A stretch of 64,000 bases of DNA, taken from positions 127,787,989 through 127,851,988 of the forward strand of contig CP136068.1 in assembly GCA_032622095.1 (NCBI GenBank), read 5' to 3'. The DNA is from Siphonodentalium dalli (Eukaryota > Mollusca > Scaphopoda > Gadilida > Siphonodentaliidae). The notes beneath the pieces were generated by a model. The model did not search any database, was not told where the DNA came from, and saw nothing but the letters and a program-made list of their open reading frames with translations. This document shows positions 29,904-59,636 of this stretch, piece after piece. Made by a program: the position numbers and the translations under genes. Position 1 is the first letter of the stretch. The number at the start of each line of letters is the position of its first letter.

Positions 29904-30512
29904 TCACCGAATAGCACACACCCACTATATTCATTTCTTAAATAACTGTCAGAACGATGCTTCGTAGGGCAGTTATGCCGGATATCAAAGCATGTTTATT
30001 AATGCAAAGCTTCAACAATGTTGCAACCGGGCAACCTTATGTGGGGAGTTTGACCCCTTAAGACGATAGCGCCGCCGCCTAGCAGTGAGCAGCATCACAC
30101 ATACATGTACACCCTCCCATTGCAGTCATTTCCGTACAGACTGAATATTGCCGCGGGTACTAACATTCTATCGCTGTAAATCCGTTGTATATTGGTGAAT
30201 GCACCCTAACTGGTTGTTATTTTGCAGCGACTATTGACAACACTCGTTTAATCCGTCCACTACCCGCGTGCCACTTTCAATACACTCTAGAGAATAAGCA
30301 CACACAATGTCATATATACTGTTCTATACCTCTGATCGGTCATATACACCGGTCAGCGACTGTTCAACACAACATCAATCTGAAGACGCTCAGACTAGTG
30401 CAGTGGCAAACCAGCAGGCAATAATTCTGTGTCCTACTAAAGGAATACGGTCGTATAGCCTGGAGCTCCCACAACAACCACCGCAGATAAACAATCGAAG
30501 CCAGGCAGAATA

Positions 30513-32177
30513 ATGGCATCAGCAATGTCAACAGGAATTAGCTTTTTTGAACAACCAAAGATGTCGCAAGACGCGAATAGCACGAATCTATCAAATTGGC
30601 GGAACGGCGACGTTGGAGGGATGTGGCGTATTCTACCACCAATTTTGCTTCTGATGACACTCTTCAGTAGCATATTAACCATTCTAGTGCTGAGGCGAAT
30701 GAAAGCCATCGACGTCAGCATTTCAAACATGCTGCTAATTCTCGCCGTGGTCGACGTAGCTTCTGTATTCACGAACCTGATCAGGGGGTGGATTTGTTCT
30801 GTATTCGGAAGTGACGTCCAAGATGCATCCACCATTACATGCGCATTTGCTCCATTTGTTCGCAGCTTTACGTCACAACTGTCGTCATGGATACTCGTCC
30901 ATTCGATATTGAGATACATGCTCGCTGCGAACGCCAGAAAAGGAGGATGTAAAGTTTATGTTCGGTCGTTCTTCATGATATCTATATTCGCGCTCATCCT
31001 TCTGAACGTACACTTTTTCCACGGATTCGAAATTACCAGAGGAATCTGTGCACACGTTGATGACGACTACCAACAATTTGTCACCAACTCTTGGCCGTTA
31101 CTTGGTGTCGCGATTGAAGTAGTCATTCCCGTTATGTTGATCACGATGTTGAGCATGCCATTCTTGAAATGTGGCTTTCAAGACGAAGTTGATATCCCTG
31201 CCAATCGAGGTCGCGAGACAGAGCACAAAATATATATAATCCCAAAAATAGACCACATTGCCAGAACCATTCTTCTTATGGCAGTGCTATTATTCGCAAG
31301 TAAAATGCCAGAGTTGGCTAGCAAGGAACACTCCGCCAATGGAGAATCAGGGAAGCAAGTCGCGTCAAACTTCATTGAGATATTCGCCAACTTCGAGAAA
31401 TGTATCCGCGTCTTTGTCTACCTTTTAGCGTGGGGAGATTTCCGCCAACAATGTCAAAAGTTATTCACACACAAAGACAAAGTTAGCGTCATACATATTA
31501 CAAACGTGAACGTCTTAGCTGTCACTCAAGTCGACGAAGACAATATCACTCGCATGAACAAGTCAGGTAGCAAGGAGACTCAACTGCCACCAACGACGAC
31601 ATTAACTGTGAGTAGCGATGAACTCGAGTCTGATAACAGGGCTCCTTTTGGTACAGGTTGGACTCAGTTGCGTCGAGCTTGGGCTCAGTTGCTCCGCCAG
31701 TCGCACGGCAAATTTACCAGAAAAGCAAACATTCGAAGGTTCAATGACCAAGACGGAACACTTAGCGATGGGAACGAACTTGCACTTTGGGCAGGCCCTC
31801 GATCTGTATTCCCCATAACACCAAGTGAAACAGCATCAGTAATTGCACTTAATACAGCAACTAGGGAGTCATCGCCTACAGAAGCTTCAAGTGAAGCAGA
31901 ATCAATCCATGGGCTTAAGACAGAACATGTTCCTTCTCCACAAGTAGAATGTTTGGACAAAACCGACTCAGTCAATGGCCATGCATGTGGAATCGTAGTT
32001 GCATCGCCTCTGACTGAAACAGGGTCAGTGTGTGTGATTGAGATTGAAAATATACCGGCACCACCATCCGAGACTTCGACTAAAACTGAAACAGCGACCG
32101 GGCTCGTGACAGCGACGAAGCTATCAGCGGATGGGTCTGATACAGAACATACATCTGCCACACCAGCAGAAACTTGA
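30513..32177 (+). CDS. Divergent class A (rhodopsin-like) G-protein-coupled receptor, intronless
   Basis: A 554-codon single frame. The N-terminus (1-36) has two N-glycosylation sequons (N22, N25). Hydrophobic segments fit seven helices: about 39-60, 70-92, 112-135, 148-169, 193-217, 247-265 and 286-306. Helix 2 ends in LAVVD, with D81 at the usual conserved Asp position. Cys110 before helix 3 and Cys179 in the second outer loop can form the standard disulfide. Helix 3 ends LRY (133-135) in place of DRY. Helix 7 ends RVFVYLLAWGDFR, where NPxxY is reduced to a retained Tyr and helix 8 is FR-type. The GN of helix 1 and the CWxP of helix 6 are not recognisable, so the receptor is divergent; peptide/FMRFamide-type receptors are a plausible comparison only. 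The start has A at -3 and G at +4. Residues ~345-554 form a Ser/Thr/Glu-rich tail with loose ~30-residue repeats. The ligand is unknown. The stop is probably due to a frameshift (see next entry). Confidence 0.8.
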   Translation: MASAMSTGISFFEQPKMSQDANSTNLSNWRNGDVGGMWRILPPILLLMTLFSSILTILVLRRMKAIDVSISNMLLILAVVDVASVFTNLIRGWICSVFGSDVQDASTITCAFAPFVRSFTSQLSSWILVHSILRYMLAANARKGGCKVYVRSFFMISIFALILLNVHFFHGFEITRGICAHVDDDYQQFVTNSWPLLGVAIEVVIPVMLITMLSMPFLKCGFQDEVDIPANRGRETEHKIYIIPKIDHIARTILLMAVLLFASKMPELASKEHSANGESGKQVASNFIEIFANFEKCIRVFVYLLAWGDFRQQCQKLFTHKDKVSVIHITNVNVLAVTQVDEDNITRMNKSGSKETQLPPTTTLTVSSDELESDNRAPFGTGWTQLRRAWAQLLRQSHGKFTRKANIRRFNDQDGTLSDGNELALWAGPRSVFPITPSETASVIALNTATRESSPTEASSEAESIHGLKTEHVPSPQVECLDKTDSVNGHACGIVVASPLTETGSVCVIEIENIPAPPSETSTKTETATGLVTATKLSADGSDTEHTSATPAET

Positions 32178-37543: not shown

Positions 37544-38204
37544 TCTCTCTTATATATTTATGTTTGTGTGTGTGTTGTACTTCATACAAATCTACGATTC
37601 TCGACCGATCGGGACGAAACTTGGTACGTGTGTGTAGTTTGACCAGGCGGTGGTCGTTGTCGTATTGGCGATCCCGTGCGACGCCCGTGCAGCGCATGCG
37701 CAGACGAAATCTCGGAAACGGGTGGAGCTATCGACTTGAAATTTGCTATGTGAATGTATCTTGCGCCGGGTACAAATTTTATCGGGTCGCCGAGCCCGTG
37801 CGACGCCCGTGCAGCGCATGCGCAGACGAGATCTCGGAAACGGGCGGAGCTATCGACTTGAAATTTGCTGTGTGAATGTATCTTGCGCCGGGTACAAATT
37901 TTATCGGGTCGCCGAGCCCGTGCGACGCCCGTGCAGCGCATGCGCAGACGAGATCTCGGAAACGGGTGGAGCTATCGACTTGAAATTTGCTATGTGAATG
38001 TATCTTGCGCCGGTTACAAATTTTATCGGGTCGCCGAGCCCGTGCGACGCCAGCTTCGCGCATGCGCAGACCAGATCTCTGAAACGGGTGGAGCTACCGG
38101 GTACAAATTTTTCTTATTGAAACGCGTGGAGCTAAAAATTAAAAAAAAATATAAAAAAAATGTCATGTTTCGGACAAGCCGCCGGTGGCGGGCTAACCTG
38201 CTAG
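37544..38204 (+). mobile_element. Helitron-like non-autonomous element
   Basis: The left end begins A|TCTCTCTTATATATTTA. The right end has a CCGCC-GGT-GGCGG hairpin (38179-38191), a 9-nt spacer, then CTAG followed by T (38201-38205). This is the Helitron arrangement: 5' TC, 3' hairpin plus CTRR, insertion between A and T, no target duplication. The interior is a 122-bp tandem repeat with no open frame of note. Proof would need a second copy or an empty site. Confidence 0.6.
37675..38160 (+). repeat. 122-bp tandem repeat, four copies
   Basis: CGTGCGACGCCCGTGCAGCG recurs at 37675, 37797, 37919 and, in changed form, 38041. Each unit carries ATGCGCAGACGA, TCTCGGAAACGGG-GGAGCTA, TCGACTTGAAATTTGCTATG and CGCCGGGTACAAATTTTATC. 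The fourth unit is truncated and diverged. Overlapping open frames on both strands are a by-product of its GC content. Confidence 0.92.
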
Positions 38205-38335
38205 TTATATTATATAGTATACCTCACGTGTGTTTCTTGTGGATTACCATAATCGAAATGTTGGCCCGATAATACATCTCGATGCCTTGAATCTCATGCG
38301 AAAATCGCTAAACCGGACGAACGAGAGTGCAACTC

Positions 38336-38337
<2 letters not shown>

Positions 38338-38408
<71 letters not shown>
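38338..38408. repeat. (TA)n microsatellite at the left edge of the giant inverted structure
   Basis: About 35 TA units run directly into GAGATAGAGTATTTCG. The mirror position at the right edge (59611-59633) has a shorter (TA)n tract. The two tracts therefore form part of, or the target of, the inverted structure. Confidence 0.9.
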
Positions 38409-38412
<4 letters not shown>

Positions 38413-39475
38413 TAGAGTATTTCGTTAGTCAAACGCGCCCCGCGCCCAGCCGCGATCGGCGCGATCTGGTAACGTACATATATACGCGCGTTCACATACG
38501 TTACTCTATCGAACTATTGAGTATGTGTCCGCGACTATTTAGTACGGGGACGTATCACCTCATATGGGGTATGTTTTTTGGGGGGGGGGTCCTTATGTTT
38601 TAAACAGGGATGTGTCAAATGAAATGTGGGCTCTATGTTGGGGGTGGGGGCATTGTCTTATATTACATTGATAAATACTCGGAAATGAAGACTTTATTGG
38701 GAAGGAACTCTTCTATGTATCACATATGTGTGTGTGTGGGGGGGGGGGGCGCTCTAAAAATAGTGTTTAATTCAGGGACGTAAATTGGTACACTGTGCGC
38801 CGGGGTACTGTTGTCTATACGTGTTTAACCACCGCAAATGGCCATTTTGTGTTGGGTCATACTCATGTTTGATACAAGGACACATTAGCGGTAATGGTTT
38901 ATCTGGGGCTATATATATTTAATGCAGTGTTGTATTACTGGAAATGGGGGCACTATTTTTTTTTGTGGGGGAGGGTAGCAATTCCGTTCGACAAGAGAGT
39001 GAATACTTGAAATGAAGCCTGTGTTTTGAATGGGAGCGCTTCTATTTTATGCAGGGATGTATAATTGGGTTTAGGACCGCGGCTTTTTAATACAGGGACG
39101 GTAGTACCATAATTATGGTTCGGTTGGAGGGGGGCATACATATGTTTAATGAAGGGATGTGTGTCCGGAAATGGGGGTCTATGTGGGGGATACTTTCTGT
39201 TACATTGATAAATAATTAGAAATAAGTGTTTTGGGCAGGAACGTTTCTATTTAATACAGGGCTATGTGTTTGTAGGGGCGAACAACTATTTAATGCAGGG
39301 GTGTATTTGACAGAAATGGCTACTTTGCATAGGGGCATACTTATGTTGGACACAAGGACCGGGAATGGAGTCTGTTGGGGCTTACTTATAATTAAGGCAG
39401 CGGTGTGATAACGGAAATACGGGCTCAATGTTGGGGATGGTAATGCATTTTACTGCATGGATGAATACCTGGAAA
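38409..39475 (+). repeat. Left outer domain of the giant structure, G-rich degenerate repeats
   Basis: After GAGATAGAGTATTTCGTTAG and a GC-rich CGCGCCCAGCCGCGATCGGC segment, the domain consists of degenerate units of roughly 70-100 bp. Their wording is TTTAATGCAGGGATGTGTA, then GGAAATGGGGGC, then a run of G (for example 38580-38588 and 38740-38749). It is mirrored at 58551-59620. It has no coding frame. Confidence 0.85.
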
Positions 39476-42400
39476 TGTATTTCACCACCTACGCATGCAC
39501 AACTATGGGTCGTAAAGTTAAGTTATTTGAGTAGGTCTATCATCCACGCACCTAGAATTGATGGACGCAACTGTCATTTTCAAGAGATAACCACGGGCCC
39601 AGATACTATAATTTAATCACGTGATTTCATGGTACTGGAGCATATGGAGCTACATTGCACCACCCACCCACATCTAAGAGTCATAAAGTGCAGTTATTTG
39701 GGCTGTACTCAACCCAAGCATCTAAAGATGATGGGACGCAGCTGGGATTTCCAGAAAGATGTGATCACAGGATCAAATACTATGCGTGATCACGAGAGTT
39801 GATGGTTCTGACGTATTTGATGCTATATTGCACAACCTACGCACAATAGTGCGTCATTATGCGGGTTATTTGGGCAGGTACACCAGCCAAGCCTATACAA
39901 TGACGGGACGTAGCTGGGATTTTCAGAAATAGGTCACCACGAGAGAAGATACTATGATTGATGAACGATAATTGATGGTTCTGATGTGTTGATCTTATAT
40001 TGCACCACAAACACACAAGTGTGCGTCATAGAGTGCAGTTATTTGGGCAGGTGCACCACACTAGCATCTATAAATGATGGGACGCAGCTGGAATTTTGAG
40101 AAATAGGTCACCACGGGAGCAGATACTAAGCGCGATCACTATATTTGATGGCTCTGACATATTTGACCTTATATTGCACAAGATCCGCACAACTGTGCGT
40201 CATGTAGTGGAGATATTTGGACAGGTACATCACCCTATAGCATCTAAAAATGATGGGACGCAGCTGGGATTTTGAGAATTAGGTCACCACGGGAGCAGAT
40301 ACTATGCTTTATCACGATATTTGATGGTTCTGATGTGTTTGACCTTAATTTGCACCACACACACACACACAACTTTGCGTCATAGAGTGGAGTTACTTCG
40401 GCAGGTGCACCACCCTAGCATCTAAAAATGATGGGACGCAGCTGGGATTTTCAGAAATAGGTCATCACGGGAGCAGATACTAAGCGCGATCACTATATTT
40501 GATGGCTCTGACATGTTTGACCTTATATTGCACCACATACGCACAAGTGTGCGTCATACAGTGCAGTTATTTGGGCAGGTGCACCACCCTAGCATATAAA
40601 AATGATGGGACGCAGCTGGGATTTTCAGAAATAGGTCACCACGGGAGAAGATACTATGAATGATGAACGATATTTGATGGTTCTGATGTGTTTGATCTTA
40701 TATTGCACCACATACGCACAAGTGTGCGTCATAGACTGGATTTATTTGGGCAGGTGCGCCACCATAGCATCTAAAAATGTTGGGACGCAGCTGGGATTTT
40801 GAGAAATAGGTCATCACGGGAGCAGATACTAAGCGCGAAAACAATATTTGATGGCTCTGACGTGTTTGACCTTATATTGCACCAGATCCGCACAACTGTG
40901 CGTCATGTAGTGGAGCTATTTGGACAGGTATATCACCCTAGCATCTAAAAATGATGGGACGCAGCTGGGATTTTCAGAAATAGTTCATCACGGGAGCAGA
41001 TACTAAGCGCGATCACTATATTTGATGGCTCTGACGTGTTTGACCTTATATTGCACCACATACGCACAAGTGTGCGTCATAGAGTGGATTTATTTCGGCA
41101 GGTGCGCCATCCTAGCATCTAGAAATGATGGGACGCAGCTGGGATTTTGAGAAATAGGTCACCACGGGAGAAGATACTGTGCTTTATCACGATATTTGAT
41201 GGTTCTGATGTGTTTGACCTTATATTGCATCAGATCCGCACAACTGTGCGTCATGTAGTGGAGTTATTTGGACAGGTGCACCACCCTAGCATCTAAAAAT
41301 GATGGGACGCAGCTGGGATTTTCAGAAATAGGTCATCACGGGAGCAAATACTAAGCGCGATAACTATATTTGATGGCTCTGACGTCTTTGACCTTATATT
41401 GCACCACATACGCACAAGTGTGCGTCATAGAGTGCAGTTATTTGGGCAGGTGAACCACACTAGCATCTAGAAATGATGGGACGCAGCTGGGATTTTGAGA
41501 AATAGGTCACCACGGGAGCAGATACTATGCGTTATCACGATAGTTGATGGCTCTGACGTGTTTGACCTTATATTGCACCAGATCCGCACAACTGTGCGTC
41601 ATGTAGTGGAGATATTTGGACAGGTACATCACCCTAGCATCTAAAAATGATGGGACGCAGCTGGGATTTTCAGAAATAGGTCATCACGGGAGCAGATACT
41701 AAGCGCGATCACTATATTTGATGGCTCTGACGTGTTTGGCCTTATATTGCACCACATACGCACAAGTGTGCGTCATAGAGTGCAGTTATTTGGGCAGGTG
41801 CACCACCCTAGCATCTAGAAATGATGGGACGCAGCTGGGATTTTGAGAAATAGGTCACCACGGGAGCAGATACTGTGCTTTATCACGATATTTGATGGTT
41901 CTGAAGTGTTTGACCTTATATTGCACCAGATCCGCACAACTGTGCGTCATGTAGTGGAGTTATTTGGACAGGTGCACCACCCTAGTATCTAAAAATGATG
42001 GAACGCAGCTGGGATTTTCAGAAATAGGTCATCACGGGAGCAGATACTAAGCGCGATCACTATATTTGATGGCTCTGACGTTTTTGACCTTATATTGCAC
42101 CAGATCCGCACAACTGTGCGTCATGTAGTGGAGCTATTTGGACAGGTATATCACTCTAGCATCTAAAAATGATGGGACGCAGCTGGGATTTTCAGAAATA
42201 GTTCATCACGGGAGCAGATACTAAGCGCGATAACTATATTTGATGGCTCTGACGTGTTTGGCCTTATATTGCACCACATACGCACAAGTGTGCGTCATAG
42301 AGTGCAGTTATTTGGGCAGGTGCACCACCCTAGCATCTAGAAATGATGGGACGCAGCTGGGATTTTGAGAAATAGGTCACCACGGGAGCAGATACTGTGC

Positions 42401-45400
42401 GTTATCACGATATTTGATGGCTCTGACGTGTTTGACCTTATATTGCACCAGATCCGCACAACTGTGCGTCATGTAGTGGAGATATTTGGACAGGTACATC
42501 ACTCTAGCATCTAAACATGATGGGACGCAGCTGGGATTTTCAGAAATAGGTCATCACGGAAGCAGATACTAAGCGCGATCACTATATTTGATGGCTCTGA
42601 CGTGTTTGACCTTATATTGCACCACATACGCACAAGTGTGCGTCATAGAGTGCAGTTATTTGGGCAGGTGAACCACACTAGCATCTAGAAATGATGGGAC
42701 GCAGCTGGGATTTTGAGAAATAGGTCACCACGGGAGCAGATACTATGCGTTATCACGATAGTTGATGGCTCTGACGTGTTTGACCTTATATTGCACCAGA
42801 TCCGCACAACTGTACGTCATGTAGTGGAGATATTTGGACAGGTACATCACCCTAGCATCTAAAAATGATGGGACGCAGCTGGGATATTCAGAAATAGGTC
42901 ATCACGGGAGCAGATACATTGCGCGATCACTATATTTGATGGCTCTGACGTGTTTGACCTTATATTGCACCACATACGCACAAGTGTGCGTCATAGAGTG
43001 GATTTATTTCGGCAGATGCGCCATCCTAGCATCTAGAAATGATGGGACGCAGCTGGGATTTTGAGAAATAGGTCACCACGGGAGCAGATACTGTGCTTTA
43101 TCACGATATTTGATGGTTCTGATGTGTTTGACCTTATATTGCACCAGATCCGCACAACTGTGCGTCATGTAGTGGAGTTATTAGGACAGGTGCACCACCC
43201 TAGCATCTAAAAATGATGGGACGCAGCTGGGATTTTCAGAAATAGGTCATCACGGGAGCAGATACTAAGCGCGATCACTATATTTGATGGCTCTGACGTG
43301 TTTGACCTTATATTGCACCAGATCCGCACAACTGTGCGTCATGCAGTGGAGATATTTGGACAGGTACATCATCCTAGCATCTAAAAATGATGGGACGCAG
43401 CTGGGATTTTCAGAAATAGGTCATCACGGAAGCAGATACTAAGCGCGATCACTATATTTGATGGCTCTGACGTGTTTGACCTTATATTGCACCACATACG
43501 CACAAGTGTGCGTCATAGAGTGCAGTTATTTGGGCAGGTGAACCAAACTAGCATCTAGAAATGATGGGACGCAGCTGGGATTTTGAGAAATAGGTCACCA
43601 CGGGAGCATATACTATGCGTTATCACGATAGTTGATGGCTCTGACGTGTTTGACCTTATATTGCACCAGATCCGCACAACTGTGCGTCATGTAGTGGAGA
43701 TATTTGGACAGGTACATCACCCTAGCATCTAAAAATGATGGGACGCAGCTGGGATTTTCAGAAATAGGTAATCACGGGAGCAGATACTAAGCGCGATCAC
43801 TATATTTGATGGCTCTGACGTGTTTGACCTTATATTGCACCACATACGCACAAGTGTGCGTCATAGTGTGGATTTATTTCGGCAGGTGCGCCATCCTAGC
43901 ATCTAGAAATGATGGGACGCAGCTGGGATTTTGAGAAATAGGTCACCACGGGAGCAGATACTGTGCTTTATCACGATATTTGATGGTTCTGATGTGTTTG
44001 ACCTTAATTTGCACCACACACACACACACACAACTTTGCGTCATAGAGTGGAGTTACTTCGGCAGGTGCACCACCCTAGCATCTAAAAATGATGGGACGC
44101 AGCTGGGATTTTCAGAAATAGGTCATCACGGGAGCAGATACTAAGCGCGATCACTATATTTGATGGCTCTGACATGTTTGACCTTATATTGCACCACATA
44201 CGCACAAGTGTGCGTCATACAGTGCAGTTATTTGGGCAGGTGCACCACCCTAGCATATAAAAATGATGGGACGCAGCTGGGATTTTCAGAAATAGGTCAC
44301 CACGGGAGAAGATACTATGAATGATGAACGATATTTGATGGTTCTGATGTGTTTGATCTTATATTGCACCACATACGCACAAGTGTGCGTCATAGACTGG
44401 ATTTATTTGGGCAGGTGCGCCACCATAGCATCTAAAAATGTTGGGACGCAGCTGGGATTTTGAGAAATAGGTCATCACGGGAGCAGATACTAAGCGCGAA
44501 AACAATATTTGATGGCTCTGACGTGTTTGACCTTATATTGCACCAGATCCGCACAACTGTGCGTCATGTAGTGGAGCTATTTGGACAGGTATATCACCCT
44601 AGCATCTAAAAATGATGGGACGCAGCTGGGATTTTCAGAAATAGTTCATCACGGGAGCAGATACTAAGCGCGATCACTATATTTGATGGCTCTGACGTGT
44701 TTGACCTTATATTGCACCACATACGCACAAGTGTGCGTCATAGAGTGGATTTATTTCGGCAGGTGCGCCATCCTAGCATCTAGAAATGATGGGACGCAGC
44801 TGGGATTTTGAGAAATAGGTCACCACGGGAGAAGATACTGTGCTTTATCACGATATTTGATGGTTCTGATGTGTTTGACCTTATATTGCATCAGATCCGC
44901 ACAACTGTGCGTCATGTAGTGGAGTTATTTGGACAGGTGCACCACCCTAGCATCTAACAATGATTGGACGCAGCTGGGATTTTCAGAAATAGGTCATCAC
45001 GGGAGCAAATACTAAGCGCGATAACTATATTTGATGGCTCTGACGTCTTTGACCTTATATTGCACCACATACGCACAAGTGTGCGTCATAGAGTGCAGTT
45101 ATTTGGGCAGGTGAACCACACTAGCATCTAGAAATGATGGGACGCAGCTGGGATTTTGAGAAATAGGTCACCACGGGAGCAGATACTATGCGTTATCACG
45201 ATAGTTGATGGCTCTGACGTGTTTGACCTTATATTGCACCAGATCCGCACAACTGTGCGTCATGTAGTGGAGATATTTGGACAGGTACATCACCCTAGCA
45301 TCTAAAAATGATGGGACGCAGCTGGGATTTTCAGAAATAGGTCATCACGGGAGCAGATACTAAGCGCGATCACTATATTTGATGGCTCTGACGTGTTTGG

Positions 45401-47936
45401 CCTTATATTGCACCACATACGCACAAGTGTGCGTCATAGAGTGCAGTTATTTGGGCAGGTGCACCACCCTAGCATCTAGAAATGATGGGACGCAGCTGGG
45501 ATTTTGAGAAATAGGTCACCACGGGAGCAGATACTGTGCTTTATCACGATATTTGATGGTTCTGATGTGTTTGACCTTATATTGCACCAGATCCGCACAA
45601 CTGTGCGTCATGTAGTGGAGTTATTTGGACAGGTGCACCATCCTAATATCTAAAAATGATGGAACGCAGCTGGGATTTTCAGAAATAGGTCATCACGGGA
45701 GCAGATACTAAGCGCGATCACTATATTTGATGGCTCTGACGTGTTTGACCTTATATTGCACCAGATCCGCACAACTGTGCGTCATGTAGTGGAGCTATTT
45801 GGACAGGTATATCACTCTAGCATCTAAAAATGATGGGACGCAGCTGGGATTTTCAGAAATAGTTCATCACGGGAGCAGATACTAAGCGCGATAACTATAT
45901 TTGATGGCTCTGACGTGTTTGGCCTTATATTGCACCACATACGCACAAGTGTGCGTCATAGAGTGCAGTTATTTGGGCAGGTGCACCACCCTAGCATCTA
46001 GAAATGATGGGACGCAGCTGGGATTTTGAGAAATAGGTCACCACGGGAGCAGATACTGTGCGTTATCACGATATTTGATGGCTCTGACGTGTTTGACCTT
46101 ATATTGCACCAGATCCGCACAACTGTGCGTCATGTAGTGGAGATATTTGGACAGGTACATCACTCTAGCATCTAAACATGATGGGACGCAGCTGGGATTT
46201 TCAGAAATAGGTCATCACGGAAGCAGATACTAAGCGCGATCACTATATTTGATGGCTCTGACGTGTTTGACCTTATATTGCACCACATACGCACAAGTGT
46301 GCGTCATAGAGTGCAGTTATTTGGGCAGGTGAACCACACTAGCATCTAGAAATGATGGGACGCAGCTGGGATTTTGAGAAATAGGTCACCACGGGAGCAG
46401 ATACTATGCGTTATCACGATAGTTGATGGCTCTGACGTGTTTGACCTTATATTGCACCAGATCCGCACAACTGTACGTCATGTAGTGGAGATATTTGGAC
46501 AGGTACATCACCCTAGCATCTAAAAATGATGGGACGCAGCTGGGATATTCAGAAATAGGTCATCACGGGAGCAGATACATTGCGCGATCACTATATTTGA
46601 TGGCTCTGACGTGTTTGACCTTATATTGCACCACATACGCACAAGTGTGCGTCATAGAGTGGATTTATTTCGGCAGATGCGCCATCCTAGCATCTAGAAA
46701 TGATGGGACGCAGCTGGGATTTTGAGAAATAGGTCACCACAGGAGCAGATACTGTGCTTTATCACGATATTTGATGGTTCTGATGTGTTTGACCTTATAT
46801 TGCACCAGATCCGCACAACTGTGCGTCATGTAGTGGAGTTATTAGGACAGGTGCACCACCCTAGCATCTAAAAATGATGGGACGCAGCTGGGATTTTCAG
46901 AAATAGGTCATCACGGGAGCAGATACTAAGCGCGATCACTATATTTGATGGCTCTGACGTGTTTGACCTTATATTGCACCAGATCCGCACAACTGTGCGT
47001 CATGCAGTGGAGATATTTGGACAGGTACATCATCCTAGCATCTAAAAATGATGGGACGCAGCTGGGATTTTCAGAAATAGGTCATCACGGAAGCAGATAC
47101 TAAGCGCGATCACTATATTTGATGGCTCTGACGTGTTTGACCTTATATTGCACCACATACGCACAAGTGTGCGTCATAGAGTGCAGTTATTTGGGCAGGT
47201 GAACCACACTAGCATCTAGAAATGATGGGACGCAGCTGGGATTTTGAGAAATAGGTCACCACGGGAGCATATACTATGCGTTATCACGATAGTTGATGGC
47301 TCTGACGTGTTTGACCTTATATTGCACCAGATCCGCACAACTGTGCGTCATGTAGTGGAGATATTTGGACAGGTACATCACCCTAGCATCTAAAAATGAT
47401 GGGACGCAGCTGGGATTTTCAGAAATAGGTCATCACGGGAGCAGATACTAAGCGCGATCACTATATTTGATGGCTCTGACGTGTTTGACCTTATATTGCA
47501 CCACATACGCACAAGTGTGCGTCATAGTGTGGATTTATTTCGGCAGGTGCGCCATCCTAGCATCTAGAAATGATGGGACGCAGCTGGGATTTTGAGAAAT
47601 AGGTCACCACGGGAGCAGATACTGTGCTTTATCACGATATTTGATGGTTCTGATGTGTTTGACCTTAATTTGCACCACACTCGCACAACTATGCGTCATA
47701 TAGTGGATTTATTTCGGCAGGTGCGCCGTCCTAGCATCTAGAAATTATGGGACGCAGCTGGGATTTTGAGAAATAGGTCACCACGGGAGCAGATACTGTG
47801 CTTTATCACGATATTTGATGGTTCTGATGTGTTTGACCTTATATTGCACCAGATCCGCACAACTGTGCGTCATGTTGTGGAGATATTTGGACAGGTACAT
47901 CACCCTAGCATCTAAAAATGATGGGACGCAGCTGGT
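39476..47936 (+). repeat. Left array of ~175-bp monomers (~350-bp dimers)
   Basis: The landmark GATGGGACGCAGCTGGGATT recurs every ~174-178 bp (for example 40257, 40435, 40609 and 40784), giving nearly 50 monomers. Two monomer types mostly alternate: TTTTCAGAAATAGGTCATCA with ACTAAGCGCGATCACTATAT, and TTTTGAGAAATAGGTCACCA with CTTTATCACGATATTTGATG. Each monomer has a palindromic GCACAA(G/C)TGTGC-type core. The three outermost monomers (39480-39990) are the most diverged, as expected at array edges. Confidence 0.95.
40341..47660 (+). repeat. Two tandem copies of a 3.66-kb higher-order block
   Basis: The rare variant GACCTTAATTTGCACCACAC marks 40341, 44000 and 47661. A sequence such as the 231-bp stretch at 42834-43064 recurs at 46495-46725 with the same translation (offset 3661). 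The blocks 40341-43999 and 44000-47660, about 21 monomers each, differ by only a few bases and a CA-dinucleotide length change, so the duplication is recent. Confidence 0.92.
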
Positions 47937-50900
47937 GAAACACGTCAGAGCCATCAAATATCGTGATAACGCATAGTATCTGCTCCCGTGGTGACCTATT
48001 TCTGAAAATCCCAGCTGCGTCCCATCATTTTTAGATGCTAGGGTGATGTACCTGTCCAAATATCTCCACTACATGACGCACAGTTGTGCGGATCTGGTGC
48101 AATATAAGGTCAAACACGTCAGAGCCATCAACTATCGTGATAACGCATAGTATATGCTCCCGTGGTGACCTATTTCTCAAAATCCCAGCTGCGTCCCATC
48201 ATTTCTAGATGCTAGTGTGGTTCACCTGCCCAAATAACTGCACTCTATGACGCACACTTGTGCGTATGTGGTGCAATATAAGGTCAAACACGTCAGACCC
48301 ATCAAATATAGTGATCGCGCTTAGTATCTGCTCCCGTGATGACCTATTTCTGAAAATCCCAGCTGCGTCCCATCATTTTTAGATGCTAGGGTGATGTACC
48401 TGTCCAAATATCTCCACTACATGACGCACAGTTGTGCGGATCTGGTGCAATATAAGGCCAAACACGTCAGAGCCATCAACTATCGTGATAACGCATAGTA
48501 TATGCTCCCGTGGTGACCTATTTCTCAAAATCCCAGCTGCGTCCCATCATTTCTAGATGCTAGTGTGGTTCACCTGCCCAAATAACTGCACTCTATGGCG
48601 CACACTTGTGCGTATGTGGTGCAATATAAGGTCAAACACGTCAGACCCATCAAATATAGTGATCGCGCTTAGTATCTGCTTCCGTGATGACCTATTTCTG
48701 AAAATCCCAGCTGCGTCCCATCATTTTTAGATGCTAGGGTGATGTATCTGTCCATATATCTCCAATACATGACGCACAGTTGTGCGGACCTGGTGCAATA
48801 TAAGGTCAAACACGTCAGAGCCATCAAATATCGTGATAACGCATAGTATCTGCTCCCGTGGTGACCTATTTCTCAAAATCCCAGCTGCATCCCATCATTT
48901 CTAGATGCTAGTGTGGTTCACCTGCCCAAATAACTGCACTCTATGACTCACACTTGTGCGTATGTGGTGCAATATAAGGTCAAACACGTCAGAGCCATCA
49001 AATATAGTGATCGCGCTTAGTATCTGCTTCCGTGATGACCTATTTCTGAAAATCCCAGCTGCGTCCAATCATTTTTAGATGCTAGGGTGATGTACCTCTC
49101 CAAATATCTCCACTACATGACGCACAGTTGTGCGGATCTGGTGCAATAAAAGGTCAAACACGTCAGAGCCATCAAATATCGTGATAAAGCACAGTATCTG
49201 CTCCCGTGGTGACCTATTTCTCAAAATCCCAGCTGCATCCCATCATTTCTAGATGCTAGGACGGCGCACCTGCCGAAATAAATCCACTATATGACGCATA
49301 GTTGTGCGTGTGTGGTGCAATTTAAGGTCAAACACATCAGAACCATCAAATATCGTGATAAAGCACAGTATCTGCTCCCGTGGTGACCTATTTCTCAAAA
49401 TCCCAGCTGCGTCCCATCATTTCTAGATGCTAGGATGGCGCTCCTGCCGAATTAAATCCACTCTATGACGCACACTTGTGCGTATGTGGTGCAATATAAG
49501 GTCAAACACGTCAGACCCATCAAATATAGTGATCGCGCTTAGTATCTGCTTCCGTGATGACCTATTTCTGAAAATCCCAGCTGCGTCCCATCATTTTTAG
49601 ATGCTAGGGTGATGTATCTGTCCATATATATCCACTACATGACGCACAGTTGTGCGGATCTGGTGCAATATAAGGTCAAACACGTCAGAGCCATCAAATA
49701 TCGTGATAACGCATAGTATCTGCTCCCGTGGTGACCTATTTCTCAAAATGCCAGCTGCGTCCCATCATTTCTAGATGCTAGTGTGGTTCACCTGCCCAAA
49801 TAACTGCACTCTATGACTCACACTTGTGCGTATGTGGTGCAATATAAGGTCAAACACGTCCGAGCCATCAAATATAGTGATCGCGCTTAGTATCTGCTTC
49901 CGTGATGACCTATTTCTGAAAATCCCAGCTGCGTCCCATCATTTTTAGATGCTAGGGTGATGTACCTGTCCAAATATCTCCACTACATGACGCACAGTTG
50001 TGCGGATCTGGTGCAATATAAGGTCAAACACGTCAGAGCCATCAAATATCGTGATAACGCACAGTATCTGCTCCCGTGGTAACCTATTTCTCAAAATCCC
50101 AGCTGCGTCCCATCATTATTAGATGCTAGGGTGGTGCACCTGTCCAAATAGCTACACTACATGACGCACAGTTGTGCGGATCTGGTGCAATATAAGGTCA
50201 AACACATCAGAACCATCAAATATCGTGATAAAGCACAGTATCTGCTCCCGTGGTGACCTATTTCTCAAAATCCCACCTGCGTCCCATCATTTCTAGATGC
50301 TAGGACGGCGCACCTGCCGAAATAAATCCACTATATGAAGCATAGTTGTGCGTGTGTGGTGCAATTTAAGGTCAAACACATCAGAACCATCAAATATCGT
50401 GATAAAGCACAGTATCTGCTCCCGTGGTGACCTATTTCTCAAAATCCCAGCTGCGTCCCATCATTTCTAGATGCTAGGATGGCGCACCTGCCGAAATAAA
50501 TCCACTCTATGACGCACACTTGTGCGTATGTGGTGCAATATAAGGTCAAACACGTCAGAGCCATCAAATATAGTGATCGCGCTTAGTATCTGCTCCCGTG
50601 ATGACCTATTTCTGAAAATCCCAGCTGCGTCCCATCATTTTTAGATGCTAGGGTGATGTACCTGTCCAAATATCTCCATTACATGACGCACAGTTGTGCG
50701 GATCTGGTGCAATATAAGGTCAAACACGTCAGAGCCATCAACTATTGTGATAACGCATAGTATATGCTCCCGTGGTGACCTATTTCTCAAAATCCCAGCT
50801 GCGTCCCATCATTGCTAGATGCTAGTGTGGTTCACCTGCCCAAATAACTGCACTCTATGGCGCACACTTGTGCGTATGTGGTGCAATATAAGGTCAAACT

Positions 50901-53900
50901 CGTCAGACAAATCAAATATAGTGATCGCGCTTAGTATCTGCTCCCGTGATGACCTATTTCTGAAAATCCCAGCTGCGTCCCATCATTTTTAGATGCTAGG
51001 GTGATGTACCTGTCCATATATCTCCACTACATGACGCACAGTTGTGCGGATCTGGTGCAATATAAGGTCAAACACGTCAGAACCATCAACTATTGCGATA
51101 ACGCATAGTATATGCTCACGTGGTGACCTATTTCTCAAAATCCCAGCTGCGTCCCATCATTTCTAGATGCTAGTGTGGTTCACCTGCCCAAATAACTGCA
51201 CTCTATGACTCACACTTGTGCCTATGTGGTGCAATATAAGGTCAAACACGTCAGAGCCATCAAATATAGTGATCGCGCTTAGTATCTGCTTCCGTGATGA
51301 CCTATTTCTGAAAATCCCAGCTGCGTCCCATCATTTTTAGATGCTACGGTGATGTATCTGTCCATATATCTCCACTACATGACGCACAGTTGTGCGGATC
51401 TGGTGCAATATAAGGTCAAACACGTCAGAGCCATCAAATATCGTGATAACGCATAGTATCTGCTCCCGTGGTGACCTATTTCTCAAAATCCCAGCTGCGT
51501 CCCATCATTTCTATATGCTAGTGTGGTTCACCTGCCCAAATAACTGCACTCTATGACTCACACTTGTGCCTATGTGGTGCAATATAAGGTCAAACACGTC
51601 AGAGCCATCAAATATAGTGATCGCGCTTAGTATCTGCTTCCGTGATGACCTATTTCTGAAAATCCCAGCTGCGTCCCATCATTTTTAGATGCTAGGGTGA
51701 TATACCTGTCCAACTAGCTCCACTACATGACGCACAGTTGTGCGGATCTGGTGCAATATAAGGTCAAACACGTCAGAGCCATCAAATATCGTGATAACGC
51801 ACAGTATCTGCTCCCGTGGTGACCTATTTCTCAAAATCCCAGCTGCGTCCCATCATTTTTAGATGCTAGGGTGGTGCACCTGTCCAAATAGCTCCACTAC
51901 ATGACGCACAGTTGTGCGGATCTGGTGCAATATAAGGTCAAACACATCAGAACCATCAAATATCGTGATAAAGCACAGTATCTGCTCCCGTGGTGACCTA
52001 TTTCTCAAAATCCCAGCTGCGTCCCATCATTTCTAGATGCTAGGATGGCGCACCTGCCGAAATAAATCCACTCTATGACGCACACTTGTGCGTATGTGGT
52101 GCAATATAAGGTCAAACACGTCAGAGCCATCAAATATAGTGATCGCGCTTAGTATCTGCTCCCGTGATGACCTATTTCTGAAAATCCCAGCTCCGTCCCA
52201 TCATTTTTAGATGCTAGGGTGATGTACCTGTCCAAATATCTCCACTACATGACGCACAGTTGTGAGGATCTGGTGCAATATAAGGTCAAACACGTCAGAG
52301 CCATCAACTATCGTGATAACGCATAGTATCTGCTCCCGTGGTGACCTATTTCTCAAAATCCCAGCTGCGTCCCATCATTTCAAGATGCTAATGTGGTTTA
52401 GCTGCCCAAATAACTGCACTCTATGACGCACAGTTGTGCGGATCTGGTGCAATATAAGGTCAAACACATCAGAACCATCAAATATCGTGATAAAGCACAG
52501 TATCTGCTCCCGTGGTGACCTATTTCTCAAAATCCCAGCTGCGTCCCATCATTTCTAGATGCTAGGACGGCGCACCTGCCGAAATAAATCCACTATATGT
52601 CGCATAGTTGTGCGTGTGTGGTGCAATTTAAGGTCAAACACATCAGAACCATCAAATATCGTGATAAAGCACAGTATCTGCTCCCGTGGTGACCTATTTC
52701 TCAAAATCCCAGCTGCGACCCATCATTTCTAGTTGCTAGGATGGCGCACCTGCCGAAATAAATCCACTCTATGACGCACACTTGTGTGTATGTGGTGCAA
52801 TATAAGGTCAAACACGTCAGAGCCATCAAATATAGTGATCGCGCTTAGTATCTGCTCCCGTGATGACCTATTTCTGAAAATCCCAGCTGCGTCCCATCAT
52901 TTTTAGATGCTAGGGTGATATACCTGTCCAAATATCTCCACTACATGACGCACAGTTGTGCGGATCTGGTGCAATATCAGGTCAAAACACGTCAGAGCCA
53001 TCAACTATTGCGATAAACGCATAGTATATGCTCCCGTGGTGACATATTTCTCAAAATCTTAGCTGCGTCCCATCATTTATAGATGCTAGTGTGGTTCACC
53101 TGCCCAAATAACTGCACTCTATGGCGCACACTTGTGCGTATGTGGTGCAATATAAGGTCAAACACGTCAGACCCATCAAATATAGTGATCGCGCTTAGTA
53201 TCTGCTTCCGTGATGACCTATTTCTGAAAATCCCAGCTGCGTCCCATCATTTCTAGATGCTAGAGTGGTTCACCTGCCCATTAAATGCACTCTATGACTC
53301 ACACTTGTGCGTATGTGGTGCAATATAAGGTCAAACACGTCAGAGCCATCAAATATAGTGATCGCGCTTAGTATCTGCTTCCGTGATGACCTATTTCTGA
53401 AAATCCCAGCTGCGTCCCATCATTTTTAGATGCTAGGGTGATATACCTGTCCAAATAGCTCCACTACATGACGCACAGTTGTGAGGATCTGGTGCAATAT
53501 AAGGTCAAACACGTCAGAGCCATCAAATATCGTGATAACGCACAGTATCTGCTCCCGTGGTGACCTATTTCTCAAAATTCCAGCTGCGTCCCATCATTTT
53601 TAGATGCTAGGGTGGTGCACCTGTCCAAATAGCTCCACTACATGACGCACAGTTGTGCGGATCTGGTGCAATATAAGGTCAAAACACATCAGAACCATCA
53701 AATATCGTGATAAAACACAGTATCTGCTCCCGTGGTGACCTATTTCTCAAATCCCAGCTGCGTCCCATCATTTCTAGATGCTAGGACGGCGCACCTGCCG
53801 AAATAAATCCACTATATGAAGCATAGTTGTGCGTGTGTGGTGCAATTTAAGGTCAAACACATCAGAACCATCAAATATCGTGATAAAGCACAGTATCTGC

Positions 53901-56900
53901 TCCCGTGGTGACCTATTTCTCAAAATCCCAGCTGCGTCCCATCATTTCTAGATGCTAGGATGGCGCACCTGCCGAAATAAATCCACTATATGACGCACAC
54001 TTGTGCGTATGTGGTGCAATATAAGGTCAAACACGTCAGAGCCATCAAATATAGTGATCGCGCTTAGTATCTGCTCCCGTGATGACCTATTTCTGAAAAT
54101 CCCGGCTGCGTCCCATCATTTTTAGATGCTAGGGTGATGTACCTGTCCAAATATCTCCACTACATGACGCACAGTTGTGAGGATCTGGTGCAATATGAGG
54201 TCAAACACGTCAGAGCCATCAACTATCGTGATAACGCATAGTATCTGCTCCCGTGGTGACCTATTTCTCAAAAATCCCAGCTGCGTCCCATCATTTCTAG
54301 ATGCTAATGTGGTTTACCTGCCCAAAATAACTGCACTCTATGACACATACTTGTGCGTATGTGGTGCAATATAAGGTCAAACACGTCAGAGCCATCAAAT
54401 ATAGTGATCGCGCTTAGTATCTGCTTCCGTGATGACCTATTTCTGAAAATCCCAGCTGCGTCCCATCATTTTTAGATGCTAGGGTGATGTACCTGTCCAA
54501 ATATCTCCACTGCATGACGCACAGTTGTGCGGATCTGGTGCAATATAAGGTCAAACACGTCAGAGCCATCAAATATCGTGATAACGCACAGTATCTGCTC
54601 CCGTGGTGACCTATTTCTCAAAATCCCAGCTGCGTCCCATCATTTCTAGATGCTAGGGTGGTGCACCTGCCCAAATAACTGCACTCTAGGACGCACACTT
54701 GTGCGTATGTGGTGCAATATAAGGTCAAACACGTCAGAGCCTTCAAATATAGTTATCGCGCTTAGTATCTGCTCCCGTGATGAACTATTTCTGAAAATCC
54801 CAGCTGCGTCCCATCATTTTTAGATGCTAGGGTGATATACCTGTCCAAATAGCTCCACTACATGACGCACAGTTGTGCGGATCTGGTGCAATATAAGGTC
54901 AAACACGTCAGAGCCATCAAATATAGTGATCGCGCTTAGTATCTGCTCCCGTGATGACCTATTTCATGAAATCCCAGCTGCGTCCCATCATTTTTAGATG
55001 CTAGGGTGGTGCACCTGTCCAAATGACTCCACTACATGACGCACAGTTGTGCGGATCTGGTGCAATATAAGGTCAAACACATCAGAACCATCAAATATCG
55101 TGATAAAGCACAGTATCTGCTCCCGTGGTGACCTATTTCTCAAAATCCCAGCTGCGTCCCATCATTTCTAGATGCTAGGATGGCGCACCTGCCGAAATAA
55201 ATCCACTCTATGACGCACACTTGTGCGTATGTGGTGCAATATAAGGTCAAACACGTCAGAGCCATCAAATATAGTGATCGCGCTTATTATCTGCTCCCGT
55301 GATGACCTATTTCTGAAAATCCCAGCTGCGTCCCATCATTTTTAGATGCTAGGGTGATGTACCTGTCCAAATATATCCACTACATGACGCACAGTTGTGC
55401 GGATCTGGTGCAATATAAGGTCAAACACGTCAGAGCCATCAACTATCGTGATTACGCACAGTATCTGCTCCCGTGGTGACCTATTTCTCAAAATCCCAGC
55501 TGCGTCCCATCATTTCTAGATGCTAGTGTGGTTCACCTGCCCAAATAACTGCACTCTATGACGCACACTTGTGCGTACGTGGTGCAATATAAGGTCAAAC
55601 ACGTCAGAGCCATCAAATATAGTGATCGCGCTTAGTATCTGCTTCCGTGATGACCTATTTCTGAAAATCCCAGCTGCGTCCCATCATTTTTAGATGCTAG
55701 GGTGATGTACCTGTTCAAATATCTCCACTACATGACGCACAGTTGTGCGGATCTGGTGCAATATAAGGTCAAACACGTCAGAGCCATCAAATATCGTGAT
55801 AACGCAAAGTATCTGCTCCCGTGGTGACCTATTTCTCAAAATCCCAGCTGCGTCCCATCATTTCTAGATGCTAGGGTGGTGCACCTGCCCAAATAACTGC
55901 ACTATATGACGCACACTTGTGCGTATGTGGTGCAATATAAGGTCAAACACGGCAGAGCCATCAAATATAGTGATCGCGCTTAGTATCTGCTTCCGTGATG
56001 ACCTATTTCTGAAAATCCCAGCTGCGTCCCATCATTTTTAGATGCTAGGGTGATGTACCTGTCCAAATATCTCCACTGCATGACGCACAGTTGTGCGGAT
56101 CTGGTGCAATATAAGGTCAAACACGTCAGAGCCATCAAATATCGTGATAACGCACAGTATCTGCTCCCGTGGTGACCTATTTCTCAAAATCCCAGCTGCG
56201 TCCCATCATTTCTAGATGCTAGGGTGGTGCACCTGCCCAAATAACTGCACTCTAGGACGCACACTTGTGCGTATGTGGTGCAATATAAGGTCAAACACGT
56301 CAGAGCCATCAAATATAGTTATCGCGCTTAGTATCTGCTCCCGTGATGAACTATTTCTGAAAATCCCAGCTGCGTCCCATCATTTTTAGATGCTAGGGTG
56401 ATATACCTGTCCAAATAGCTCCACTACATGACGCACAGTTGTGCGGATCTGGTGCAATATAAGGTCAAACACGTCAGAGCCATCAAATATAGTGATCGCG
56501 CTTAGTATCTGCTCCCGTGATGACCTATTTCATGAAATCCCAGCTGCGTCCCATCATTTTTAGATGCTAGGGTGGTGCACCTGTCCAAATGACTCCACTA
56601 CATGACGCACAGTTGTGCGGATCTGGTGCAATATAAGGTCAAACACATCAGAACCATCAAATATCGTGATAAAGCACAGTATCTGCTCCCGTGGTGACCT
56701 ATTTCTCAAAATCCCAGCTGCGTCCCATCATTTCTAGATTCTAGTGTGGTTCACCTGCCCAAATAACTGCACTCTATGACGCACACTTGTGCGTACGTGG
56801 TGCAATATAAGGTCAAACACGTCAGAGCCATCAAATATAGTGATCGCGCTTAGTATCTGCTTCCGTGATGACCTATTTCTGAAAATCCCAGCTGCGTCCC

Positions 56901-58550
56901 ATCATTTTTAGATGCTAGGGTGATGTACCTGTCCAAATATCTCCACTACATGACGCACAGTTGTGCGGATCTGGTGCAATATAAGGTCAAACACGTCAGA
57001 GCCATCAAATATCGTGATAACGCACAGTATCTGCTCCCGTGGTGACCTATTTCTCAAAATCCCAGCTGCGTCCCACCATTTCTAGATGCTAGGGTGGTGC
57101 ACCTGCCCAAATAACTACACTATATGACGCACACTTGTGCGTATGTGGTGCAATATAAGGTCAAACACGTCAGAGCCATCAAATATAGTTATCGCGCTTA
57201 GTATCTGCTCCCGTGATAAACTATTTCTGAAATTCCCAGCTGCGTCCCATCATTTTTAGATGCTAGGGTGATATACCTGTCCAAATAGCTCCACTACATG
57301 ACGCACAGTTGTGCGGATCTGGTGCAATATAAGGTCAAACACGTCAGAGCCATCAAATATAGTGATCGCGCTTAGTATCTGCTCCCGTGATGACCTATTT
57401 CTGAAAATCCCAGCTGCGTCCCATCATTTTTAGATGCCAGGGTGGTGCACCTGTCCAAATAAATCCACTACATGACGCACAGTTGTGCGGATCTGGTGCA
57501 ATATAAGGTCAAACATGTCGGAGCCATCAAATATAGTGATCGCGCTTAGTATCTGCTCCCGTGATGACCTATTTCTGAAAATCCCAGCTGCGTCCCATCA
57601 TGTTTAGATGCTAGGGTTGTGCACCTGCCCAAATAACTGCACTCTATGACGCACACTTGTGCGTATGTGGTGCAATATAAGGTCAAACACGTCAGAGCCA
57701 TCAAATATAGTTATCGCGCTTAGTATCTGCTCCCGTGATGACCTATTTCTGAAAATCCCAGCTGCGTCCCATCATGTTTAGATGCTTGGGTGATGTACCT
57801 GTCCAAATATCTCCACTACATGACGCACAGTTGTGCGGATCTGGTGCAATATAAGGTCAAACACGTCAGAGCCATCAAATATCGTGATAACGCATAGTAT
57901 CTGCTCCCGTGGTGACCTATTTCTCAAAATCCCAGCTGCGTCCCATCATTTCTAGATGCTAGTGTTGTGCACCTGCCAAAATAACTGCACTCTATGACGC
58001 ACACTTGTGCGTTTGTGGTGCAATATAAGATAAACACATCAGAACCATCAATTATCGTTCATCAATCATAGTATCTTCTCTCGTGGTTACCTATTTCTGA
58101 AAATCCCAGCTGCGTCCCATCATTGTATAGGCTTGGCTGGTGTACCTGCCCAAATAACCCACATAATGACGCACTATTGTGCGTAGGTTGTGCAATATAG
58201 CATCAAATACGTCAGAACCATCAACTCTCGTGATCACGCATAGTATCTGATCCTGTAATCACATCTTTCTGGAAATCCCAGCTGCGTCCCATCAACTTTT
58301 GATGCTTGGGTTGAGTACAGCCCAAATAACTGCACTTTATGACTCTTAGATGTGGGTGGGTGGTGCAATGTAGCTCCATATGCTCCAGTACCATGAAATC
58401 ACGTGATTAAATTATAGTATCTGGGCCCGTGGTTATCTCTTGGAAATGATTGTTGCGTCCATCAATTCTAGGTGCGTGGATGATAGACCTACTCAAATAA
58501 CTTAACTTTACGACCCATAGTTGTGCATGCGTAGGTGTTGAAATACATTT
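47937..58550 (-). repeat. Right array of ~175-bp monomers, opposite orientation
   Basis: From TGAAACACGTCAGAGCCATC onward, the reverse complement of the same monomers is read: AATCCCAGCTGCGTCCCATC every ~175 bp, about 60 units. Both monomer types are present. Several units have unique changes (for example TTTCATGAAATCCC at 54961 and 56527). Segments of ~0.8 kb at about 54360-55168 and 55926-56734 match at an offset of 1566 bp, showing a separate recent amplification. The outermost units (58020-58550) mirror the diverged outermost units of the left arm. Confidence 0.95.
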
Positions 58551-59620
58551 CCAGGTTTTCATCCATGCAGTAAAATGCATTACCATCCCCAACATTGAGC
58601 CCGTATTTCCGTTATCACACCACTGCCTTAATTATAAGTAAGCCCCCACAGACTCCATTCCCGGTCCTTGTGTCCAACATAAGTATGCCCCAATGCAAAG
58701 TAGCCATTTCTGTCAAATACACCCCTGCATTAAATAGTTGTTCGCCCCCTACAAACACATAGCCCTGTATTAAATAGAAACGTTCCTGCCCAAAACACTT
58801 ATTTCTAATTATTTATCAATGTAACAGAAAGTATCCCCCACATAGACCCCCATTTCCGGACACACATCCCTTCATTAAACATATGTATGACCCCCCCCCC
58901 CCGACCGAACCATACTTATGGTACTACCGTCCCTGTATTAAAAAGCCACGGTCATAAACCCAATTATACATCCCTGCATAAAATAGAAGCGCTCCCATTC
59001 AAAACACAGGCTTCATTTCAAGTATTCACTCTCTTTTCGAACGGAATTGCTACCCCCCCCCCCCAAATAGTGCCCCCATTTCCAGTAATACAACACTGCA
59101 TTAAATATATATAGCACCAGATAAACCATTACCGCTAATGTGTCCTTGTATCAAACATGAGTATGACCCAACACAAAATGGCCATTTGCGGTGGTTATAC
59201 ACGTATATACAACAGTACCCCGGCGAACAGTGTACCAATTTTGTTACGTCCCTGAATTAAACACTAGAGCGCCCCCACACACACACATCTGTGATACATA
59301 GAAGAGTTCCTACCCAATAAAGTCTTCATTTCCGAGTATTTATCAATGTAATATAAGACAATGCCCCCCCCCCCCCAACATAGAGCCCACATTTCATTTG
59401 ACACATCCATGTTTAAAACATCCCCCCCCCCCCAAAAAAAAAAAACATACCCCATATGAGGTGATACGTCCCCGTATTAAATAGTCGCGGACACATACTC
59501 AATAGTTCGATAGAGTAACGTATGTGAACGAGCGTATATATGTACGTTACCAGATCGCGCCGATCGCGGCTGGGCGCGGGGCGCGTTTAACTAACGAAAT
59601 ACTCTATCTCTATATATATA
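58551..59620 (-). repeat. Right outer domain of the giant structure
   Basis: This is the inverted copy of 38409-39475. It has C runs where the left has G runs (58891-58902, 59055-59064, 59365-59378 and 59424-59433) and the landmarks CATTACCATCCCCAACATTG and CCATATGAGGTGATACGTCC. It ends CGAAATACTCTATCTC before the (TA)n tract. Homopolymer lengths differ between the arms. Confidence 0.88.
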
Positions 59621-59636
59621 TATATATATATATACT

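What the first reader, a model, noticed from the sequence alone, without database searches (positions are those of the whole stretch)
38338..59636. Giant ~21-kb foldback-like structure with satellite arms
Both ends carry the same ~1.1-kb G-rich outer domain in inverted orientation, and the interior is two long opposing arrays of one ~175-bp monomer. The layout of outer domain plus inner tandem repeats within long inverted arms is that of foldback transposons, but at a scale that would make it an unusual or undescribed element. It could alternatively be a palindromic satellite or an inverted segmental duplication. The arms differ by scattered substitutions, indels and array content, which argues against a simple hairpin assembly artefact.
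Basis: partly seen in the sequence, partly recalled or inferred. Interest (0 to 1): 0.88.

Follow-up and report, generated by a model that had tools for sequence, protein, structure and literature searches.

The report
Giant foldback transposon carrying satellite arrays
A stretch of about 21,000 bases that looked like one odd palindrome belongs to a family of mobile DNA elements, present at about a dozen places in this genome, whose cargo is two opposing satellite-DNA arrays, which suggests that long satellite arrays can spread by transposition.

Summary
Window 38409-59610 is a 21,202-bp inverted structure: two ~1.07-kb outer domains in inverted orientation, and between them a (+) array (48 anchors) and a (-) array (60) of a 174-bp monomer, joined without a spacer. 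It is neither a one-off nor an assembly hairpin: in the same 2.23-Gb genome the outer domain forms 12 inverted pairs spanning 12.5-44.8 kb, on 7 of 9 contigs. Eight elements read through are array between the outer domains, 23-129 monomers per arm. Twenty-three of 24 ends abut TA repeats. Two copies on different chromosomes share both arms at ~99.5% per monomer and the same central junction, in opposite orientation. In 9 of 11 typical elements one arm is of lineage A and the other of lineage B; the other two are AA and BB, read as gene conversion. Best reading: a non-autonomous, TA-microsatellite-targeting foldback transposon with satellite cargo. No transposase is known (the search for one did not complete); a target duplication (8 bp) is readable at one locus only. 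New variant of a known kind.

The parts
38339..38408 (.). (TA)35 tract at the left edge; probably target-site microsatellite
   Evidence: TA repeats abut 23 of 24 ends of the 12 paired elements
38409..39475 (+). left outer domain (terminal inverted repeat, A-lineage arm); begins GAGATAGAGTATTTCGTTAGTC; built of degenerate internal repeats
39476..39653 (+). degenerate first monomer between outer domain and array
   Evidence: by eye
39654..47935 (+). left satellite array, 48 anchors, 174-bp monomers, with a 21-monomer block present twice
47934..47936 (.). central junction, no spacer, ~2 bp microhomology, arms out of phase by 77 of 174 bp
47936..58343 (-). right satellite array, 60 anchors, same monomer family inverted
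58344..58547 (-). degenerate outer monomer of the right arm
   Evidence: by eye
58548..59610 (-). right outer domain (terminal inverted repeat, B-lineage arm); terminus GAGATAGAGTATTTCGTTAGTT
59611..59634 (.). (TA)12 tract at the right edge

Best explanation
A non-autonomous foldback-type DNA transposon family. Shown: a ~1.07-kb terminal inverted repeat starting GAGATAGAGTATTTCGTTAGT; two inward-facing arrays of a 174-bp monomer filling the interior of the eight elements read through; ends in TA repeats; one ~20-kb element present as two near-identical copies at unrelated loci. Inferred: a transposase supplied in trans binds the terminal repeats, moves the whole unit and inserts it in a TA microsatellite, probably with a target duplication of about 8 bp. 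After insertion the arrays change by unequal exchange or slipped gap repair (21-monomer repeat block here; a 26-monomer difference between the C5 and C8a copies), one arm can overwrite the outer few kb of the other by gene conversion (AA and BB elements), and the palindrome centre is cut and rejoined at short homologies, leaving an asymmetric junction.
For: 12 inverted pairs at separate loci. Eight of eight elements read through have outer domain, (+) array, (-) array, outer domain, 23-129 monomers per arm (anchors at most 420 bp apart within an array). Eight anchors within 1.5 kb in 22 of 24 arms of the 12 pairs, 7 in C4 left (L026), 0 in C4 right (L016). TA: 18 of 24 ends have at least 8 bp of uninterrupted TA, 5 have TA interrupted within 8 bp, 1 has none; background is 4 of 42,698 window positions following (TA)5, and 28 of 14,000 in ten element flanks. 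Whole-unit copies: C5 and C8a share 54 monomers (mean 99.5%, 31 identical) in one arm; in the other, 36 outer and at least 12 inner monomers in register at 98.9-100%, differing by 26 monomers; same centre junction in opposite orientation; no similarity between their 1.5-kb flanks at E 1e-10 with dust filtering. Two arm clades, supports 100/99 and 99/98; 13 columns (11 sites, one 3-bp indel counted once) fixed between A and B in 9 of 9 A/B elements; C6a has the A state and C6c the B state on both arms at all 13. C6a arms match in register for 16 monomers (99.2%), C6c arms to ~2.03 kb, then diverge. Interrupted target at C6b: TAGCTATA on both sides. Small derivatives keep one terminus: 45-48 bp (L054; L055/L056, one duplicated locus), ~220 bp (L052), a ~176-bp foldback (L053).
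Against: No transposase or autonomous partner is known. Of 39 sites with the 21-bp terminus (reversed control 1), 24 are ends of the 12 pairs; of the other 15, 11 were read for 1.0-4.1 kb and 4 not at all, and none was put to a protein search; the PF10551 search did not complete. The target duplication rests on one locus. Three B ends (C8a, C7b, C9) and L024 share TCTATATA before the terminus, which an 8-bp duplication of a pure TA target does not predict; C5, sister of C8a, lacks it. The left end of C6a is not in TA. C4 departs from the pattern: its left terminal repeat is interrupted after 25 bp by ~390 bp and its right array breaks after ~1.5 monomers. The A and B distance matrices do not correlate (Mantel r=0.011, p=0.47); four clades are shared between the arm trees (label permutation 7.7e-5, clades picked after seeing the trees; two of their eight supports are below the 95/80 mark). 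The A arms of own and C7a (34 monomers, 97.2%) match no better than opposite arms of one element (own 97.3%, C7a 97.5%). Ectopic conversion between elements already in place could mimic part of the unit-copy evidence.
Confidence: 0.85

Rival explanations
1. Short foldback elements inserted first; the satellite arrays then grew or were overwritten in place, by unequal exchange, gap repair or ectopic conversion between elements, so giant units never moved as such.
For: Array lengths differ in all eight elements read; seven distinct central junctions among eight; short derivatives exist; A and B arm distances do not correlate (Mantel); A arms of own and C7a match no better than the within-element controls.
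Against: C5 and C8a share nearly every monomer of both arms plus the junction, on different chromosomes with unrelated flanks; own and C7a share 54 monomers of the B arm in order, with gaps, at 98.2%.
Confidence: 0.2
2. Assembly artefact: hairpin read or collapsed satellite.
For: Inverted satellites are a known source of assembly errors (general knowledge); the centre has no spacer.
Against: 12 pairs at separate loci, fixed arm-specific differences, unrelated flanks, no N inside the eight arrays read; the only N run (100 N, C3a) lies in the flank.
Confidence: 0.03
3. Inverted segmental duplication or palindromic satellite that merely resembles a transposon.
For: Duplications do occur near relatives: an inverted flank duplication at C4 (L026/L057) and a duplicated locus on C5 (L055/L056).
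Against: 23 of 23 intact outer domains of the pairs start at GAGATAG, with different flanks.
Confidence: 0.03
4. Mobile, but by another route, such as rolling-circle or extrachromosomal-circle integration at TA tracts instead of a cut-and-paste transposase.
For: Satellite arrays can move as circles (general knowledge); no transposase identified.
Against: Two precise inverted termini at 11 of 12 loci and terminus-retaining short derivatives like those left by interrupted gap repair (the parallel is general knowledge).
Confidence: 0.1

Closest known systems
Tetris foldback transposon of Drosophila virilis (PMC4079207; abstract, first of two parts of Results, first of two parts of Discussion read)
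   Same: Long TIRs with an outer flanking domain followed by tandem repeats (~220 bp); no coding capacity; repeats expand into satellite arrays; no autonomous copy found
   Different: Tetris TIRs reach 1,735 bp; its long arrays (up to 66 copies) are read by the authors as expansion that may have disrupted transposition. Here arms carry 23-129 monomers while both termini are kept (eight elements), and one ~20-kb unit has a sister copy elsewhere. Tetris has a middle domain; here the arrays meet directly.
MuTAnT, Medicago Mutator-like elements targeting TA microsatellites (PMC4486113; abstract, Results, Discussion read)
   Same: Foldback structure, insertion mostly in (TA)n, duplications hidden by the microsatellite
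   Different: Non-autonomous copies of ca. 200 bp to over 1.6 kb; no satellite arms described; putative autonomous element known; 9-bp duplications
Tm1, Mutator/foldback family of root-knot nematodes (PMC3169594; abstract and passages seen)
   Same: Composite TIRs with variable numbers of tandem repeats; the two TIRs of one element differ in size and average 93% identity
   Different: 13-15-bp repeats; the one size seen is 1,080 bp; mostly 9-bp duplications, no clear target consensus; some copies encode a putative transposase
Galileo and FB of Drosophila (passages in PMC4079207; otherwise recalled)
   Same: Foldback layout with internal tandem repeats
   Different: Galileo belongs to the P superfamily; arms much smaller (recalled)
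Helitron/Helentron carriers of satellite-like repeats (PMC12628747, passages seen)
   Same: Mobile elements that hold and disperse satellite-like repeats
   Different: No inverted arms; different termini (recalled)

Membership tests
Foldback-type elements (structural class) | Long terminal inverted repeats with outer domain and inner tandem repeats | tested here: met
   Eight of eight elements read through
Foldback-type elements (structural class) | Copies at unrelated loci | tested here: met
   12 pairs; no C5-C8a flank similarity at E 1e-10
Foldback-type elements (structural class) | Target-site duplication | tested here: inconclusive
   8 bp at C6b only; TA repeats mask the rest
Foldback-type elements (structural class) | Insertion polymorphism or empty site | not testable with these tools
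   No second individual was available
Mutator superfamily | Transposase of the family with matching termini | not tested
   PF10551 query unanswered; terminus sites were not put to a protein search
Mutator superfamily | 8-11 bp target duplication | tested here: inconclusive
   One 8-bp case
Tetris family | Sequence relation to Tetris | not tested
   No Tetris sequence was fetched
P superfamily (Galileo-like) | P-type THAP transposase | not tested
   No search made

The most novel reading that the evidence does not exclude
A transposon whose cargo is the satellite itself: complete, higher-order-structured satellite arrays of 12-45 kb in inverted pairs are dispersed as single transposition units into TA microsatellites, so a satellite spreads genome-wide by transposition, while its palindromic form is kept by end-in gene conversion and repeated re-joining of the centre.
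Probability: 0.55. Interest if true: 0.8.

Novelty: new variant of a known kind. Interest (0 to 1): 0.7.

Why it matters
How satellite arrays reach new chromosomal places is a long-standing question. In Tetris, larger arrays were suggested to have disrupted transposition. Here eight elements with 23-129 monomers per arm keep both termini, and one giant unit has a sister copy, so array dispersal by transposition becomes testable. Palindromes of this length are also expected to be unstable (general knowledge); seven different asymmetric centres and two arm-converted elements are a natural record of how a genome processes them.

Tried and rejected
Rejected: single-locus palindrome or inverted segmental duplication (12 loci); hairpin artefact (fixed A/B differences); satellite monomers derived from the outer domain (best local score 20, inside the 17-23 of 20 shuffles); a coding interior of the window element (no closed stop-to-stop frame of 100 aa or more lies in 39476-58547; no Rfam match in the window). 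Tried without the hoped-for result: Mantel test of arm co-divergence (r=0.011, p=0.47); Pfam on three window frames, 0 of 3 matched. Literature: six searches answered (listings seen) and four failed. In those listings and the papers opened (PMC4486113, PMC4079207, PMC3169594, PMC6431247, PMC12628747, PMC12910113; the last four as passages only) I saw no foldback element with arms of this size; most subscription journals are not held. Not done because the genome search did not complete: monomer census outside the elements, Mutator-domain search, spread of the ~390-bp shared flank, genome-wide search for the centre junction. C7b, C3b, C6c and C4 were not read through. An earlier count gave 57, 231 and 190 bp for derivatives and 28 and 387 bp for the C4 end; recounting gives 45-48, ~220, ~176, 25 and ~390 bp.

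Full report
Anatomy. The window lies in a genome of 2.227 Gb in 9 contigs; the species was not identified. The self-comparison gives one inverted structure, 38385-59634 including TA. Its body is 38409-59610: outer domain, degenerate monomer, (+) array, junction at 47934-47936, (-) array, degenerate monomer, outer domain. Monomers average 89.4% identity whether taken within the left arm, within the right arm or between arms. The outermost two monomers correspond between arms (98.3% and 95.4%), which suggests one inverted pair with later inner turnover; the left arm carries a 21-monomer block twice.

Family. The outer domain gave 41 matches in the genome (66 candidates, 40 scored, so a lower bound). 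Twenty-four form 12 inverted pairs with the same, inward orientation. Spans: own 21.2 kb, C7a 44.8, C6a 24.7, C6b 15.7, C3a 19.3, C5 19.5, C8a 24.2, C7b 43.0, C9 14.5, C3b 19.8, C6c 12.5, and C4 34.6 kb if the terminus found is its left end. The other 17 rows, 85-94% identical and many truncated, have no partner in the scored list. Seven elements were fetched whole (C5 lacks its last ~450 bp there, covered by L007). These seven and the window copy are array between the outer domains: 114/129, 45/82, 53/23, 42/55, 57/41, 67/58, 38/29 and 47/60 monomers (C7a, C6a, C6b, C3a, C5, C8a, C9, own, anchors with up to 4 substitutions and at most 420 bp apart, so small interruptions would not show). For C7b, C3b and C6c only the ends were read; each end has 8 anchors inside 1.5 kb. 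C4 is atypical: 25 bp of terminus, ~390 bp of other sequence and the outer domain from position 181 on the left; on the right the array breaks after ~1.5 monomers.

Target. Of 24 ends, 18 abut at least 8 bp of pure TA, five abut TA interrupted within 8 bp, and one (C6a left) has none. At C6b the tract is interrupted and the same 8 letters, TAGCTATA, flank both sides, the only readable duplication. At C4 the TA runs are 8 and 12 bp, compatible with an 8-bp duplication. Against this, C8a, C7b and C9 share TCTATATA before the terminus of their B arm, as does L024, so some TA sequence may belong to the mobile unit; C5, the sister of C8a, lacks it.

Evidence for movement as a unit. An ML tree of 30 outer domains puts nine elements with one arm in clade A and the other in clade B, with A on the left in six and on the right in three; C6a has both arms in A and C6c both in B. 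Thirteen columns (11 sites) are fixed between A and B. Mean substitution distance is 1.05% within A, 1.08% within B and 2.4% between. Four clades recur in both arm trees; random labels give this 77 times in a million (chosen post hoc; two of the eight supports fall below 95/80), while the distance matrices as a whole are uncorrelated. The strongest case is C5 and C8a: 54 monomers of one arm at 99.5%; in the other arm 36 outer and at least 12 inner monomers in register, with a 26-monomer difference in number; the same junction, read on opposite strands; different chromosomes; no flank similarity at the threshold used. Own and C7a share 54 B-arm monomers in order, with gaps, at 98.2%, but their A arms match no better than opposite arms within one element.

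Palindrome dynamics. Eight centres show seven distinct junctions, each with 1-5 bp of apparent microhomology and the two arms 7-77 bp out of phase (the extension method favours microhomology). None of the eight is a symmetric palindrome. This looks like the centre revision known for long palindromes in yeast and mouse (recalled, not from a call). C6a arms agree in register for 16 monomers and C6c arms to ~2.03 kb, then diverge, as expected for arm-to-arm conversion from the ends.

Derivatives. L052 keeps ~220 bp of one end; L053 is a ~176-bp foldback lacking its last ~8 bp on the right; L054 and the duplicated locus L055/L056 keep 45-48 bp followed directly by TA repeats. I read them as interrupted gap repair after excision; this is inference.

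Placement. It works like a foldback element, and the structural criteria are met. Superfamily is open: the GAGATA start recalls maize Mu ends (recalled), and TA targeting with foldback arms matches MuTAnT (PMC4486113), but no transposase was tested. The nearest described case that I saw is Tetris (PMC4079207), whose authors suggest that larger arrays may have disrupted transposition; the present family suggests that they need not.

Noticed in passing
window 37559-38209: Element with a 122-bp tandem repeat and, by eye, a Helitron-like 3' end (hairpin then CTAG) just left of the foldback; similar sequence in the right flank of C6a and, by eye, beside L024 and L054
   Followed up: partly
L028, L029, L030 (L051 by eye): About 390 bp, nearly identical among loci and LTR-like by eye, sits directly outside TA repeats plus the outer domain; the old copies may have been carried by another element. 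Genome search for it did not complete
   Followed up: partly
L026 and L057 (C4:143.384-143.395 Mb): Flank, TA and 25 bp of terminus inverted-duplicated (96% over 523 bp); the duplication ends where the C4 outer domain resumes at position 181
   Followed up: partly
L027 (C2:219.008-219.010 Mb): A terminus in (+) orientation (56 bp matching) lies ~1.8 kb from a (-) outer domain's outer edge, with 4 monomer anchors between: apparently a small, truncated member
   Followed up: no
L054, L055, L056: Relics at two independent loci end at nearly the same outer-domain position (45-48 bp), followed directly by TA repeats
   Followed up: no
L021, L017, L020, L024: B-arm ends of C8a, C7b and C9 (3 of 11 B ends) share TCTATATA before the terminus, as does L024
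   Followed up: partly
window 24426-27548: 33-bp minisatellite, 94 copies, open in several frames on both strands
   Followed up: no
window 30459-32177: 572-aa open frame, membrane-protein-like by eye, no Pfam match at 0.001
   Followed up: partly
window 13517-14665: 87-bp tandem repeat with a 354-bp higher-order period
   Followed up: no
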